Assembly: GCA_947482665.1 (NCBI GenBank)
Contig: CANKJK010000014.1
Span: forward strand, 1-64,000
Reading direction: 5' to 3'
Length of the DNA: 64,000 nt
Origin: Acidobacteriota bacterium
GTDB lineage: Bacteria > Acidobacteriota > Vicinamibacteria > Vicinamibacterales > UBA2999
Positions 17,031 to 63,419 of the stretch are shown here, piece by piece. Within the stretch, counting starts at the first letter, position 1; every line of letters starts with the position of its first letter. The notes beneath the pieces were generated by a model, which saw only the letters and a program-made list of their open reading frames with translations, was not told the origin of the DNA and did not search any database. The position numbers and the translations under genes were made by a program.

Positions 17031-17600
17031 GTGACCAAGAACAGGCTCGAAGCGTTCAGCGACGGCGTCATCGCCATCCTCATCACGATCATGGTGCTGG
17101 AGCTCAAGGTGCCGGATGACCCGTCCCTGCAGGGCCTGCGCGCCGTCGCACCAACTCTGGTCACCTACGCACTCAGCTACCTCTACCTGGGCATCTACTG
17201 GAACAACCACCACCACCTGATTCACGCGGCGGAGCACATTAATGGCGCCGTGCTCTGGGCAAACCTGTTTCTGCTCTTCTGGCTGTCATTGATCCCCTTC
17301 GCCACGCACTGGATGGGCCACTCCAGCTTCGCGCCAGGCCCGACGGCCCTCTACGGCGTGATCCTGCTCCTGGCCGCCGGCAGCTTCAAGCTGCTCGTGA
17401 TCAGTCTGCTCCGGATCCGGAGCAACACGCGGCTGGCGCAAGCACTCGGCACCGACCGCAAGGGCAACGTTTCGGTGGTCGTCTATGTCCTCGCCACCGT
17501 GATTGCGCGTAGCCACCAGACAACGGCCCTCTTCCTGTATGCGGCGGTTGCGGCGATGTGGCTCGTGCCAGACCGCCGCATCGAACGGCGCGCGGCCTAG
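17031..17600 (+). CDS. TMEM175-like (DUF1211) potassium channel family protein
   Basis: 189 residues, six predicted TM helices. It starts with the family hallmark [20 protein letters not shown] (R-x3-FSDG), then [32 protein letters not shown] and [14 protein letters not shown]. Bacterial TMEM175 proteins are tetrameric leak K+ channels with hydrophobic filters. The GTG at 17031 gives the usual short N-terminus; a GTG at 17025 is also possible, and the Shine-Dalgarno is weak. The TAG stop is formed at the junction with the palindromic element that follows. Confidence 0.9.
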
Positions 17601-17761
17601 CAGCCCGTGGTGCAAGTCCCACTGCATTCGACGAACGATGCATCCCCGCTGGCTGCGTGGCTCTTCCGTCAAATACTCCCGGTATTCTCGGTCATCGCGC
17701 CTTGCCATCGGGGCGCCTCGTCCGTCTCGGTGCAACGCGGGACTTGCACCACGGGCTGCTA
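17598..17761. repeat. 164-bp palindromic MITE-like element
   Basis: Terminal arms 17598-17620 and 17739-17761 are a perfect 23-bp inverted repeat beginning TAGCAGCCCGTGG. The interior is an imperfect continuation of the palindrome, with an apical near-repeat (CAAATAC...GTATTC). Omitting the outer TA on each side leaves 21-bp arms flanked by TA, as for IS630/mariner-type MITEs. No ORF is inside. It fills the gap between two convergent genes, and its ends supply both TAG stop codons. Alternatively it is a bidirectional terminator. Only one copy is seen here. Confidence 0.6.
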
Positions 17762-20677
17762 GAAGCGGACGCCCAGCGCCAACCGGACAGCGCGAGCGCC
17801 GTTCTGTCCGGGATACGGCTGCGGGAACTGGTTGTCGGCGGTCGCCTGGCCAAACCGGGCGCCGCGGATGAAACCCGTCGGAATGCCATTGGCATCCAGA
17901 GTGCTGGCGCGATCCACGGTCACCGTCCGGTCCCATGCGATCTGCTTCTGGTTGTTGAAGAGGTTGTACACCTCCAGCTTGACCCACGGCCGCAGGCGGG
18001 CAGCGACGGGAAACGTGTACGTCGTTGCCAGGTCCATCACGCCGTAGCCCTTGAAGGTCTCGACGCCGCGCGTGCCGAAGTACACGGTCTGACGGACGCC
18101 AGGACTGATGTCGTTGGCGGGATAGCCGGGGTTGCGCGCCAGCATCGCAGCCGGCGTGGCGAGTGTCGCCATCAGGCTGTAGGCCGTGCCAGAATTGACG
18201 CGCCAGATCGGCGCGACATCAATCACGCCGAGGCGGTGTGACGTCGCGCTCCAGGTACCCCAGACCCGGAGCTTGTGGCGCTGAAACTGGTCCAGGCGAC
18301 CGAATGGCGCAAGCCGGTCCAGGGCCGGACCCAGGATTTCAGGGAAGTCTCCAAAGGGCGAGGCCGTGCCAGGCTGCCCCGCGGCCTCACCGACAAACGA
18401 CGCGTGATTGCGAATCTGGAGCGTGTACGTGCCGGCGACCGTCGCATGATGGCCGGCGCGCGCCTGACCTTCGAAGATCGCCGCGCGGTAGATCCGGGAG
18501 GGCGCATCGGTGTTCGTGATCAGGCGATTGGTCACCGTGCCCACAAAGGGGATAGTGGTCGTGCCGTTGGCGAGACTGATCACGTCGTCGACGAAGTGCG
18601 TGGTGGACCGGTCCACGTAGGTACCGCGCACGCGCAGTGAGCCGCCGATGCGGTGTGCACCGCCGATCGTGAACTCCCGCACCACGGGCGAGCGCAGACC
18701 GTCTGCCACACGTACGTTGGCCGTGGGTACGTTCGCGAAGACGACCTGGGTGTAGTTCGCTGGATCCAGACCCGGCGCGAAATCGAGGCCCTGCCCGGCA
18801 GGTCCGGCATAGACGTAGTCGATTTCACTGGGGCGACCGACACTCGTGTTCTGGGAGAACTGGTTCTGCGTGTACTTGCCGGCATAGGTTCCGGCCGTGA
18901 CAGACAGGACGGTCTCGCCGTCACCGGAGAGATCCAGCGCAGCAGCCAGTCTCGGCGACGCCGTCGTCGAATCCACGGTCAGGATTCCGCCAGTGGCCGT
19001 GCCCCGAACAAACTCCAGACGCACGCCGGCATCCACGGTGAGGCGCGGCGCCGCGATCCAGCGGTCCTGTGCGTAGAGTGACGCCGTTCGGATATCAACC
19101 TGGGCGCCACGCGTGGCCGTGAACTGCCAGGCTTCGGACACGCCCGGCGTAAAGACCGGAATCACGCGGCGTGCGGAATCCAGCGCCGGCACGCCGGCGC
19201 GCGCCAGGTAGTCCGTGACGAACACCCGTCCGGTGGGCGACTGCGAATTGCCACCGATCCCGGTCGTCACGAAATGCTCTCCGCCGACGCGCAGGTCGTG
19301 AGTCCCCCAGCGGCCGGCCGAGGCGAGCGCGGAGAGCGCACCTGTCAGCTGGTGGTTGTTCCGCGACTCCGGGTCGAGGGCGTCCAGGTAGGGAGCGCTA
19401 TAGAAGAACCCGCCAGGGACGCCGGCAAGGGCGCCCTGCGTCTGGAACGGCGAGTTGGCGAGCGCCGTGCCGGCGCCGCCGTTGCCGACGAACCGCTGCC
19501 GCTTCGTGGACCACTGCACGGTCGCGAAGAGGCGCGACGAGAGCGGCGCGCTGTAGCCCGCCACGAACAGCCGGTTCGGCAGCCGCCGCGTGATCAGCGC
19601 GCCCGCATCCAGGAGACGCGTGGCACCGACCGCCGCCGTGTTCGCCTGCTCGGTCCCGTCCCCGATGAACGACACCCGCGCCGTATCGGCCGCGCGGAGC
19701 CGCCCCGTCAGCGTGAGCTCTCCCCGCTGGTTGCGGTCTGTCCGCGTGAAGGCGCCGCCTGTTTGGGCGAAGGTCTGTGGGGTCTCGCTGTGTTCCAGCC
19801 GGCCAGCGGTAAAGAACCACAGGCGGTCTGTCCGCAGCGGCCCGCCGAAGGTGCCCTCGTGTACGTAGCCGAGGACGTCGCGATGCGCGATGCCCGCCGT
19901 GCGTTCCCGTGGGGTCTCCCCGATCCACGACGGGTTGGAGAGGTTCTCGCGGACGCTTCCGCTGAAGCGGTTGCCCCCACTCTTGGTGACGACGTTGATC
20001 ACGCCCCCGGTAAAGCGGCCCAGGCTGGCCGGCGCGCCATGCACCACCACACTGGTCTCCTCGACCGCGTCCTCGATGAAGAGCGTCGTCGAAGTCCCGA
20101 ACAGGTTGTCGTTCACATCCACGCCGTTGACGAGGAAGACGTTGTCGTAGCCAAACGCGCCCCCGATCGCGAGCTGACCCGCATTGACCGTATTCGTCGT
20201 CAGCCCTGGGACCAGCTCCGCGATGTCCACCGGCCGGCGGCTCACGGGCAACAGGTCGACGAGCTTCTTGCCCACGGTCTGCCCGACCGCGCCGGTCCCC
20301 GCGGCCGGCCCGGCGGAGGACGTCACCTCAATGTGCGCCTCGGCCGTCACGGCCAGTTCAACGTCGAGGCGCACCGTCGTCGAGGCGTGCACGACCGCGT
20401 GCCGCTCGACCGGCGGCCGTCCCGAGGTCGCAATGGTGACGGCGTAGTCACCAGGCGGCAGCGACCGGAGCACGAACACGCCGTGCTCGTCGGTCGCGGT
20501 CTCACGCATGCCCTGGAGCGAGGGCGAGTGCACCGTGAGCGTCGCTCCGGATACCGCTGCGCCGGAGGCCACACGGATGCGGCCGGTCAGGGTCCCGGTC
20601 GCGGCAGTCTGGGCGCCCACGGGCAGCGCACGCACCCACAGGGCACACACGAGTATCAGCACGGGCAGTCTGGCCAT
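17759..20677 (-). CDS. TonB-dependent receptor-like protein with carboxypeptidase-regulatory domain
   Basis: 972 residues. Signal peptide (MARLPVLILVCALWVRALPV, cut near GAQ), a carboxypeptidase D regulatory-like domain (about 25-105: GTLTGRIRVASGAAVSGATL), a plug (about 130-240: VFLVNGVDVNDNLFG, GGVINVVTKSGGNRFSGSV) and a barrel to a terminal Phe (LALGVRF), as in outer-membrane proteins. This is the Oar-like TonB family common in Acidobacteria; the ligand is unknown. AGGAG lies 6 bases before the ATG at 20677 and fixes the start over an ATG at 20683. The divergent amidohydrolase suggests a peptide- or amide-related substrate, which is inference. Confidence 0.93.
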   Translation of the reverse strand: MARLPVLILVCALWVRALPVGAQTAATGTLTGRIRVASGAAVSGATLTVHSPSLQGMRETATDEHGVFVLRSLPPGDYAVTIATSGRPPVERHAVVHASTTVRLDVELAVTAEAHIEVTSSAGPAAGTGAVGQTVGKKLVDLLPVSRRPVDIAELVPGLTTNTVNAGQLAIGGAFGYDNVFLVNGVDVNDNLFGTSTTLFIEDAVEETSVVVHGAPASLGRFTGGVINVVTKSGGNRFSGSVRENLSNPSWIGETPRERTAGIAHRDVLGYVHEGTFGGPLRTDRLWFFTAGRLEHSETPQTFAQTGGAFTRTDRNQRGELTLTGRLRAADTARVSFIGDGTEQANTAAVGATRLLDAGALITRRLPNRLFVAGYSAPLSSRLFATVQWSTKRQRFVGNGGAGTALANSPFQTQGALAGVPGGFFYSAPYLDALDPESRNNHQLTGALSALASAGRWGTHDLRVGGEHFVTTGIGGNSQSPTGRVFVTDYLARAGVPALDSARRVIPVFTPGVSEAWQFTATRGAQVDIRTASLYAQDRWIAAPRLTVDAGVRLEFVRGTATGGILTVDSTTASPRLAAALDLSGDGETVLSVTAGTYAGKYTQNQFSQNTSVGRPSEIDYVYAGPAGQGLDFAPGLDPANYTQVVFANVPTANVRVADGLRSPVVREFTIGGAHRIGGSLRVRGTYVDRSTTHFVDDVISLANGTTTIPFVGTVTNRLITNTDAPSRIYRAAIFEGQARAGHHATVAGTYTLQIRNHASFVGEAAGQPGTASPFGDFPEILGPALDRLAPFGRLDQFQRHKLRVWGTWSATSHRLGVIDVAPIWRVNSGTAYSLMATLATPAAMLARNPGYPANDISPGVRQTVYFGTRGVETFKGYGVMDLATTYTFPVAARLRPWVKLEVYNLFNNQKQIAWDRTVTVDRASTLDANGIPTGFIRGARFGQATADNQFPQPYPGQNGARAVRLALGVRF

Positions 20678-60770: not shown

Positions 60771-62174
60771 ATGGGCCGCATCCTGATCGCCGACGACCAC
60801 GACTCCCTTCGCCGCGGACTGGTCCGCGCGCTGTCTGACGCCGGACACGACGTGGACGAGGCCGCCAGCGGCAACCTCGCGATCGAGAAGCTCCATGACG
60901 CGGTCTTTGACGTAATCGTCAGTGACCTCAAGATGGGCGGCAGCACGGGGATCGACGTGCTCAAGACCGCGCGTGTGCTGCAGCCGCACGCCGCCGTGAT
61001 CCTGATGACCGCGTTCGGGTCGGTCTCCACCGCGGTGGAAGCCATGAAGAGCGGTGCCTTTGACTACGTGCAGAAGCCATTCGAGATCGAGGAGATGGAG
61101 GTCAAGATCGCGCGGGCGCTGGAACTGCGGCAGATGCAGCACCAGATCGACTACCTGAGCCACGCCTCGGGAGACATCTACGAATTCGACCGGATCATCG
61201 GGTCCAGCGGCGCCCTCGAATCCGTCCTGACCGTGGTCCGCAAGGTGGCCAAGAGCAACACCACGATCCTGGTGCGCGGCGAAACAGGCACAGGCAAGGA
61301 ACTCATCGCGGGGGCGATTCACCATAACTCGCACCGCTCCGGACGCAACTTCGTCAAGGTGAACTGCGCCGCGCTGCAGGAGAACCTCCTCGAGTCGGAA
61401 CTCTTCGGCCACGAAAAGGGCGCCTTCACGGGCGCCGACAAACAGCGGGTAGGCCGGTTCGAACAGGCCGACGGTGGCACGCTGTTCCTCGACGAAATCG
61501 GCGACATGAGTCCGAATACGCAGGCCAAGATCCTGCGCGTACTCCAGGAGCAGGAATTCGAGCGGCTCGGCGGAACGCGGACCTTGAAAGTAGACGTCAG
61601 GCTGATCGCCGCCACGAACCGGCATCTGGCCACGATGGTCGAGGCCGGCACCTTCCGCGAGGATCTCTATTACCGGTTGAATGTCGTCACGATCGAAATG
61701 CCGCCACTGCGGGATCGGAAGGAGGACATCCAGGAGCTCACTGGATTCTTTGTCCGTCGATTCTCGGGGGAGCTGAAGAAGAAGGTGGCCGGATTCGACA
61801 CGGAGGCCATCAAGCTCCTGATGCGTTACAACTGGCCCGGCAATGTCCGCGAACTTGAGAATGCGATCGAGCGGGCGATCCTCCTGTCGGATGGACCGGA
61901 CGTGACGGCCGCGGACCTCAGGCTCGGCGACAGCACGCCCAGCGGGGCGTCACGCGAGGGCACCTCGCTCGTCAAGATTCCCCCGACCGGCATCGCGCTG
62001 GAAGAACTCGAGAAGCAGGCCTTGATCGAGGCCCTCAAGATGTCGAACTGGGTGCAGAAGGATGCGGCGGACCTGCTCCACATCAGCCCGCGCGTCATCA
62101 ACTACAAGATCAAGGTGCTGAATATCGAGTTCCCGCACGGCCGCCGGGCCGCACCGGACCCGGCGCGCGTCTGA
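60771..62174 (+). CDS. NtrC-family sigma-54 response regulator (AtoC-like)
   Basis: 467 residues. Receiver at 1-120 (MGRILIADDHDSLRRGLVRA, phospho-Asp in VIVSDLKMGGST), AAA+ activator at ~145-390 with Walker A GETGTGKE, EKGAFTGADKQRVG, GTLFLDEIGDM and LREDLYYRLNVV-type R finger, and a Fis-type HTH at the end (QKDAADLLHISPRVINYKIK). It activates sigma-54 promoters after phosphorylation. It follows the PAS kinase gene closely. The PEGA promoter in this segment is a natural candidate target. GAAAGGG precedes the ATG. Confidence 0.95.
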   Translation: MGRILIADDHDSLRRGLVRALSDAGHDVDEAASGNLAIEKLHDAVFDVIVSDLKMGGSTGIDVLKTARVLQPHAAVILMTAFGSVSTAVEAMKSGAFDYVQKPFEIEEMEVKIARALELRQMQHQIDYLSHASGDIYEFDRIIGSSGALESVLTVVRKVAKSNTTILVRGETGTGKELIAGAIHHNSHRSGRNFVKVNCAALQENLLESELFGHEKGAFTGADKQRVGRFEQADGGTLFLDEIGDMSPNTQAKILRVLQEQEFERLGGTRTLKVDVRLIAATNRHLATMVEAGTFREDLYYRLNVVTIEMPPLRDRKEDIQELTGFFVRRFSGELKKKVAGFDTEAIKLLMRYNWPGNVRELENAIERAILLSDGPDVTAADLRLGDSTPSGASREGTSLVKIPPTGIALEELEKQALIEALKMSNWVQKDAADLLHISPRVINYKIKVLNIEFPHGRRAAPDPARV

Positions 62175-62186
62175 ACACGATTCAGC

Positions 62187-62292
62187 AGCCGGGGAGGGTG
62201 CAAGGCGTTTCCTGCGCTCCTCGGGCGCCAGAGGAGTGCGCTCGGCTTGTTCACTTCAGTCGCGCTGGAAACGCCTTGCACCCTCCCCGGCT
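62187..62292. repeat. Hairpin element copy 1 (26-bp stem, conserved core)
   Basis: Arms 62187-62212 and 62267-62292 are perfectly complementary for 26 bases around a 54-base loop. The core 62212-62270 matches copy 2 (62319-62377) at 49 of 59 positions with no gap, while the outer arms (GCCGGGGAGGGTGC type) share nothing with copy 2. No protein is encoded. It lies between the response regulator and xerC. Confidence 0.85.
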
Positions 62293-62306
62293 CTCGACGG
62301 TCATGG

Positions 62307-62386
62307 GCGATCCGCTTTCTGCGCCACGCGGGCGCCAGAGAAGCGCACTCGGTGCGTTCACGTCAGTCGCGCTGGAAGCGGATCGC
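62307..62386. repeat. Hairpin element copy 2 (11-bp stem, conserved core)
   Basis: GCGATCCGCTT (62307-62317) pairs with AAGCGGATCGC (62376-62386), with one more U-G and one C-G pair inside. The core 62319-62377 equals copy 1 at 49 of 59 positions. Shared blocks are GGGCGCCAGAG and GTCGCGCTGGAA. Confidence 0.85.
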
Positions 62387-62465: not shown

Positions 62466-63419
62466 TCAGCGGGCTCTGGGGTGGGCCTTGCGGTAGACGT
62501 CGAGCAACTGCGCGGCATTCACGTGCGTGTAGCGCTGCGTCGTCGAGAGACGCACGTGGCCGAGCAGTTCCTGAATCGCACGCAGATCCGCGCCTCGCTC
62601 AAGCAGATGTGTCGCGAACGAATGGCGCAGCGCGTGCGGGCTGATCCCGAAACGCGTGGAGCACATCGAAACATAGCGCCCCACCAGCCGCTGCACGCTG
62701 CGGCCGGTCAGCCGGCCACCGCGTGCGTTCACGAATACCGGATGGCCACCGCGGCGCGCCCCCCCAGCGGTCCGGGCAGGGGCGGAGGCCGCCGGCCGAG
62801 CGGCGACCTGCCGTGCGAGGACTTCACGATCAGGAAGCCAGGCCCGCAGTGCCGCCGCCGCGCTGTGGTTGAAGGGTACCAGGCGTTCCCGACCGCCCTT
62901 CCCAAGCACGCGCGCCATCCGTGCCGTGAGATTGACGTCTTCCAGATCGAGACCCACCAACTCGCTCAGCCGAAGACCCGAGGCATAGAACAACTCGAGA
63001 ATGGCACGGTCGCGCCGCCCGAGGGGTTCACCGGTGTCCGGCATCTCCAGCACGCGGCTCATCTCGTCCACCGAGAGATGCGCGGGCACACGCTGTTCGC
63101 GCTTCGGCGCCACCGTCAGCGCGGCCGGATCCGACTCAATCACGCCTTCCCGCCGGAGGTACCGCAGGAAGCTCCGGATCGCGGAGAGCTTCCTCCCCGC
63201 GGACGCGCGGGACTGGCCGGCTCGGTGCAGGTCACCCATGAAACCCCTGATGGCCTGCAGGTCGAGTTGATCGGGCGTCAGCGTGTCTGCTGGGACGCCC
63301 TGGGCTCCAGCCACGGACTCGAGCCATTGGCCAAGGTCGCGGCGATACGCGCTGACCGTATGCGGGGAGGCGTTGCGGTTCAGCGCGAGATAGTCGAGAA
63401 ACTCCCGCAGCGCCTGCAT
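62466..63419 (-). CDS. xerC: Site-specific tyrosine recombinase XerC
   Basis: 317 residues, typical length. N-terminal SAM-like core-binding domain ([20 protein letters not shown]) and catalytic domain with Arg in [20 protein letters not shown], Lys in [13 protein letters not shown]-x-x-R in [20 protein letters not shown], His in [11 protein letters not shown] and Tyr in RYTHVNAAQ. An Ala/Pro/Gly-rich loop ([20 protein letters not shown]) near 220-245 is an insertion. It resolves chromosome dimers at dif with XerD. The ATG at 63419 lies 4 bases after the trmFO stop; trmFO-xerC adjacency is typical and supports XerC over XerD. Confidence 0.93.

What the first reader, a model, noticed from the sequence alone, without database searches (positions are those of the whole stretch)
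62187..62386. Tandem hairpins with a conserved core and exchanged, self-complementary arms
Two units, 62187-62292 and 62307-62386, share a 59-nt core at 49 of 59 positions (62212-62270 vs 62319-62377). Their outer stems are unrelated in sequence, yet each is perfectly self-complementary (26 bp and 11 bp). Conserved loop plus swapped but paired stems means that pairing itself is kept, either as a structured RNA with variable stem or as a DNA element whose arms arise by copying flanking sequence. It does not match REP, CRISPR or attC layouts. It sits exactly at the junction where the xerC-hslV neighbourhood is interrupted.
Basis: seen in the sequence. Interest (0 to 1): 0.75.

Follow-up and report, generated by a model that had tools for sequence, protein, structure and literature searches.

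The report
Repeated hairpins with interchangeable paired arms
About forty places in this one bacterial genome, almost all just behind the ends of genes, carry the same small conserved cap on a roughly 29-base-pair stem whose letters differ at every place but always pair, so the folded shape itself is kept; this looks like a private, previously undescribed family of gene-end hairpins.

Summary
It is not a chance local duplication. A covariance model finds 40 copies in the same 3.5-Mb genome, in two subfamilies. None was found in 43 same-family, 162 same-order or about 400 same-phylum genomes. An 18-nt cap word scanned through 85,000 species gave one unrelated hit.

In dispersed copies the arms are unrelated beyond about 11 nt from the cap (34% identity, near background), yet they pair over a near-constant 29 bp, and pairing stops sharply at position 30. 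Double compensatory changes occur at 26 of 30 stem pairs (230 cells against 85 in shuffles). The cap is 93-94% identical between copies; its loop is 52%. Caps show no recent dispersed pairs. The simplest reading is an old family: cap and pairing under selection, arm letters drifting.

Of 24 intergenic gaps holding the element, 15 lie between convergent genes, 9 between tandem genes and none between divergent genes. Most copies start within 40 nt of a stop codon, 17:4 in one orientation. I read it as a gene-3'-end hairpin (terminator, antisense barrier or mRNA-end protector). The acting molecule (RNA or single-stranded DNA) is unproven, and the wobble asymmetry points to the opposite strand.

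The parts
62187..62212 (.). unit 1, left arm (26 nt), perfectly complementary to 62267-62292
62213..62266 (+). unit 1, conserved 54-nt cap (TGCGCTCC...GTTCACTTCAGTCGCGCT): T.T mismatch, GCGC/GCGC stem, conserved strand GTTCACTTCAGTC, variable terminal loop
62267..62292 (.). unit 1, right arm
62307..62319 (.). unit 2, left arm (11 bp perfect plus TC; degenerate further out)
62320..62373 (+). unit 2, conserved cap (diverged copy)
62374..62386 (.). unit 2, right arm
60771..62174 (+). upstream neighbour: sigma-54-dependent response regulator; its stop codon lies 12 nt before unit 1
62466..63419 (-). convergent neighbour: XerC-type tyrosine recombinase

Best explanation
A lineage-private family of about 40 structured gene-end elements. 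Each is a ~110-115-nt hairpin: a conserved 54-nt cap (T.T or A.A mismatch, GCGC/GCGC stem, conserved strand GACTGAAGTGAACGAGCC opposite GCGGA, variable loop) on a ~29-bp stem. Shown: copy number, covariation, fixed arm length, position behind stop codons, absence from sampled relatives. Inferred: the cap is a recognition site for a protein or RNA, and the stem only has to be double-stranded and about 29 bp long, so its letters drift with compensation. At the 3' end of a gene, often shared by two convergent genes, the hairpin ends or blocks transcription or protects the mRNA end; in convergent gaps it would also keep read-through out of the neighbour. The copies most likely dispersed long ago and are now kept by selection, with only local tandem duplication still visible.
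For: 40 copies at E <= 1.1e-5. Covariation: 86% of stem cells paired against 63% in shuffles and 34-47% when slid; 230 double-change cells against 85 +/- 7. Pairing about 0.8 at positions 1-30, dropping to about 0.35 at 31 and beyond; arm length 28.7 +/- 3.8. Identity between copies: cap 0.93/0.94, loop 0.52, arms 12-30 0.34, outside 0.30; cap differences star-like, so cap identity reflects constraint rather than recency. The divergent subfamily keeps the A.A mismatch, GCGC stem, conserved strand and paired arms. Location: 15 convergent, 9 tandem, 0 divergent gaps, against 8/53/36 element-free gaps in the same regions, p = 6e-8. 17 of 21 stop-proximal copies run in one orientation, p = 0.007. 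In gaps of 133-146 nt the hairpin fills nearly all the space between two stop codons. Neighbours are ordinary housekeeping genes. Compensatory stem evolution of real terminators is documented in Bacillus cereus (PMC5381666).
Against: No T-run follows the hairpin, so it is not a textbook intrinsic terminator. Arm mismatches are G.U-type on the strand opposite to the one the adjacent gene transcribes (45 against 17, p = 5e-4; per copy 16 against 6, p = 0.05), which does not fit selection on the gene's own mRNA. REPs and MITEs also avoid promoters and favour convergent gaps, so location alone does not prove termination. Absence from every sampled relative is odd for an old, selected element. No expression data.
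Confidence: 0.5

Rival explanations
1. DNA element: the hairpin acts as a cruciform or single-stranded DNA site (for a nucleoid protein, gyrase, or a strand-specific DNA-binding protein), in the way REP/BIME elements do, and sits behind genes only because it is tolerated there.
For: Wobble asymmetry (45 against 17) marks one strand although the elements lie in both orientations; elements occur in clusters of mixed orientation (C5 247.4-248.5 kb, C24); location matches that of REPs (PMC3733652).
Against: No relation of orientation to local GC skew (20:18) or coding direction (16:22); the gene-relative orientation rule (17:4) favours transcription.
Confidence: 0.25
2. Relic of a mobile element: a cap that inserted into existing palindromes, or built its arms by copying flanking DNA through template switching, so that arms were new at each landing site.
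For: Dispersed copies of caps differing by only 3 nt have unrelated arms, while local duplicates keep theirs; copies are scattered on at least 14 contigs; the MITE-like family B in the same order also carries different TIR arms on one conserved cap.
Against: Caps with few differences are no more frequent than expected from saturation, so those pairs need not be recent; no target duplications, no Y1 transposase in the genome, a positional arm consensus out to position 11, and a fixed outer limit at 30 nt.
Confidence: 0.2
3. Small RNA genes or hairpin guides: each arm is a ~28-nt sequence directed at a target elsewhere.
For: Fixed arm length, unrelated arms, a common processing-like cap.
Against: 34 arms have only their own partner arms and local duplicates as clear matches in the genome, and no significant match in 50,697 phage records; cap-near arm consensus and mismatches fit drift.
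Confidence: 0.03

Closest known systems
REP / BIME / REPIN elements (GTAG and CGTC families, RAYT-associated)
   Same: Multi-copy intergenic palindromes, clusters of mixed orientation, preference for convergent and tandem gaps, complementary stem changes, G.T pairing in stems (PMC3733652)
   Different: REPs are 20-40 bp with stems mostly of 6-9 bp and a GTAG or CGTC end tag; here the stem is ~29 bp, there is no end tag, the conserved part is the inner cap, and the genome has no Y1 transposase
Intrinsic transcription terminators of convergent genes
   Same: Hairpin a few nt to tens of nt after the stop codon, shared by two genes, compensatory stem evolution (PMC5381666; hairpins without a U trail are claimed to terminate, PMC8355165)
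   Different: Ordinary terminators share no 54-nt conserved cap across loci, and stems of ~29 bp without a T-run are unusual (own knowledge)
attC sites of integrons
   Same: Stem with variable sequence and conserved unpaired features, strand-specific fold (own knowledge)
   Different: attC keeps its outer R boxes and varies inside; here the outside varies and the inside is kept, and there are no cassette arrays
MITEs, including family B in the same window (17598-17762)
   Same: Long palindrome with a conserved middle, at a convergent gene junction
   Different: Family B is found in 31 of 59 genomes including relatives, with CTAG-type ends and near-identical recent copies; the element here has no fixed ends and no recent dispersed copies

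Membership tests
REP/RAYT elements | GTAG or CGTC tetranucleotide at one end of a short (6-13 bp) stem | tested here: not met
   no conserved outer motif at arm tips or flanks; arms 28.7 +/- 3.8 nt
REP/RAYT elements | Y1 (PF01797) transposase in the genome | tested here: not met
   0 matches in own genome, 5 of 14 control genomes ring
REP/RAYT elements | intergenic, avoiding divergent gaps | tested here: met
   15 convergent, 9 tandem, 0 divergent
MITE | conserved terminal inverted repeats | tested here: not met
   arms 34% identical between copies at positions 12-30, near background 30%
MITE | target-site duplication | tested here: not met
   direct repeats at arm ends no more frequent than in random pairings
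Intrinsic terminator | hairpin within ~80 nt downstream of a stop codon | tested here: met
   24 of 37 within 40 nt
Intrinsic terminator | T-run after the hairpin | tested here: not met
   none in the flanks read
Intrinsic terminator | transcript 3' ends at the hairpin | not testable with these tools
   no RNA data
Rfam RNA families | match to a curated covariance model | tested here: not met
   none at gathering score in the window; only chance matches at relaxed E-value on three loci
attC | conserved outer R'/R'' core sites and cassette array with IntI | tested here: not met
   outer ends have no motif; copies are scattered between housekeeping genes; IntI itself was not searched

The most novel reading that the evidence does not exclude
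A dedicated, lineage-specific system for ending or insulating genes: one trans-acting factor (protein or RNA) recognises the conserved cap on a stem of measured length (~29 bp) behind dozens of unrelated genes, with stem sequence irrelevant, working on the strand opposite to the adjacent gene to stop antisense read-through at convergent junctions.
Probability: 0.2. Interest if true: 0.8.

Novelty: new variant of a known kind. Interest (0 to 1): 0.5.

Why it matters
One genome supplies about 40 natural replicates of the same structure with the stem sequence randomised and the cap fixed, an unusually clean case for asking what selection sees: sequence in the cap, pairing and length in the stem. 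If the cap is a recognition site, it points to an unknown factor that handles gene ends in a little-studied lineage. It also shows that intergenic stem-loop families can be invisible to similarity searches outside one genus.

Tried and rejected
Exact cap pattern in 85,000 species and in IMG/VR: one chance hit each, without hairpin. Cap against plasmids and phages: no real match; the Novosphingobium 26-nt match has no such fold. Weak model hits in relatives (sigma-factor-like gene, argH-like gene) and the 14-nt cap word in 10 relatives: no element hairpin. Arms as guides: no significant third copies. Y1 transposase: absent. Target duplications: none. Orientation against GC skew and local coding direction: no relation. 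Gene order after xerC in relatives to look for empty sites: failed, orientation and ends not resolved; relatives' XerC is 59-74% identical, so intergenic DNA would hardly align anyway.

Full report
Observation. The two units are present exactly as described: 49 of 59 core positions shared, arms of 26 bp and 11 bp perfect. They lie between a sigma-54-type response regulator gene (+, stop at 62174) and xerC (-, stop at 62466), two convergent genes. A perfect 26-bp palindrome is far beyond chance (about 1e-8 expected); the 11-bp one alone is not.

A family in one genome. A 64-nt query finds 32 copies in the same genome. A covariance model of the cap (R1) finds 40 at E <= 1.1e-5, including a divergent subfamily (six copies clustered at C5 247.4-248.5 kb, two at C8 57.1-57.4 kb) with the same A.A mismatch, GCGC/GCGC stem, conserved strand GACTGAAGTG...CGAGCC and paired arms. 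It was not found elsewhere: none by sequence in 39 relatives, none by model among 43 same-family, 162 same-order and 297 same-phylum genomes apart from weak chance hits, none by pattern in 396 phylum genomes, one chance 18-nt hit in 85,000 species, nothing in plasmids or phages. The model searches of large groups score few candidates per genome, so very diverged relatives could be missed. No other genome of the same genus appeared in the searches; XerC of the nearest relatives is about 73% identical.

Anatomy. From the cap outward, pairing frequency is about 0.8 for positions 1-30 and falls at 31 to the background of about 0.35; arm length is 28.7 +/- 3.8 nt. Arms keep a consensus near the cap (GGAAGCRCAYC, positions 1-11) and none beyond. 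Between copies the two cap blocks are 93-94% identical, the terminal loop 52%, arms 12-30 34%, outside 30%. Swapped-arm controls and slid or shuffled alignments show that pairing is specific to each copy. Two copies with unpaired arms (C24:16628 and C5:248410) look like recombinants: each joins one unit's arm to another's.

Age and origin of the arms. Local tandem duplicates keep arm similarity (C7 97%, C4 71%), dispersed copies do not, whatever their cap similarity (Spearman 0.07). Taken alone this suggests arms acquired at landing. But near-identical caps are no more frequent than column-shuffled caps give (2 against 0.8 with <= 3 differences; 15 against 11 with <= 5). So there is no sign of recent dispersal; cap identity reflects constraint, and unconstrained letters (loop, arms) are saturated. 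This favours drift with pairing maintained, by selection or by template-switch repair of quasi-palindromes (the latter from established knowledge). It does not strictly exclude arm replacement.

Place and direction. In about 480 kb surveyed, elements occupy 15 convergent and 9 tandem gaps and no divergent one; element-free gaps of 80 nt or more in the same regions are 8 convergent, 53 tandem, 36 divergent (p = 6e-8 for convergent, 1e-4 for divergent). Gene calls come from a simple codon-usage finder I wrote, trained on the window, and the regions were chosen around elements, so the ratio is indicative. 24 of 37 elements start within 40 nt of a stop codon, in three of these cases near both. Of the other 21, 17 have the TGCGCTCC...TCGCGCT strand running with the gene (p = 0.007). 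Neighbours are unrelated housekeeping genes, e.g. isocitrate lyase, arginine decarboxylase, lipoyl synthase, FKBP.

Strand puzzle. Arm mismatches that would be G.U on the opposite strand outnumber those on the gene-sense strand 45 to 17 in 28 independent copies (p = 5e-4; per-copy sign test p = 0.05). If RNA folding is selected, the relevant RNA is then antisense to the adjacent gene, for instance read-through from the convergent neighbour; alternatively single-stranded DNA matters, or mutation is strand-biased. I leave this open.

Mechanism. Most likely, with moderate confidence, the element is a gene-end hairpin: a stem of about 29 bp in which only pairing counts, carrying a conserved cap that something recognises, acting in termination, in blocking antisense read-through, or in protecting mRNA ends. 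There is no T-run, so a plain intrinsic terminator is not claimed.

Comparison. It resembles REP/BIME elements in location and clustering but fails their end tag, stem size and transposase tests. It fails MITE tests (conserved ends, target duplication). Rfam has no match. Compensatory stem evolution of terminators is known (PMC5381666); a shared 54-nt cap over dozens of such stems is what is unusual. The literature searches found no description of this family, in open-access text only.

Taxon. I think the host is an acidobacterial metagenome-assembled genome (order Vicinamibacterales), judging from relatives' genome sizes and gene neighbourhoods; this is inference and was not tested.

Noticed in passing
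window 17598-17762: Second long palindrome: 23-bp perfect arms TAGCAGCCCGTGGTGCAAGTCCC around a ~116-nt core, seemingly with the stop codons of both flanking convergent genes inside its CTAG ends. Found in 31 of 59 genomes (own and relatives), up to 14 or more per genome, with 97-99% identical copies in this genome: an apparently active MITE-like family.
   Followed up: partly
L103, L104, L106, L111, L118, L139 (family B copies in relatives): The MITE-like family B keeps one conserved core but carries quite different paired terminal repeats in different copies (CTAGCAGCCCGTGG, CTAAGTACCGCGTT, CTAGTGTCCTGGAAC, CTAGAACCCCTCTC ...), as if one core rides on different transposon ends.
   Followed up: partly
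L087 (G000:C5:246400-249500): A 1.24-kb convergent intergenic region made of tandem-duplicated units with at least six hairpins in alternating orientation, one of them a recombinant with unmatched arms.
   Followed up: partly
L021 (C7 end) and L023 (C16 end): Both contigs end inside ~234-bp tandem units carrying the element, so assembly breaks there; C7 and C16 may be joined by a longer array.
   Followed up: no
element arms, all copies: Arm mismatches are strand-asymmetric (G.U type on the strand opposite to the adjacent gene's transcript, 45 against 17), unexplained.
   Followed up: partly
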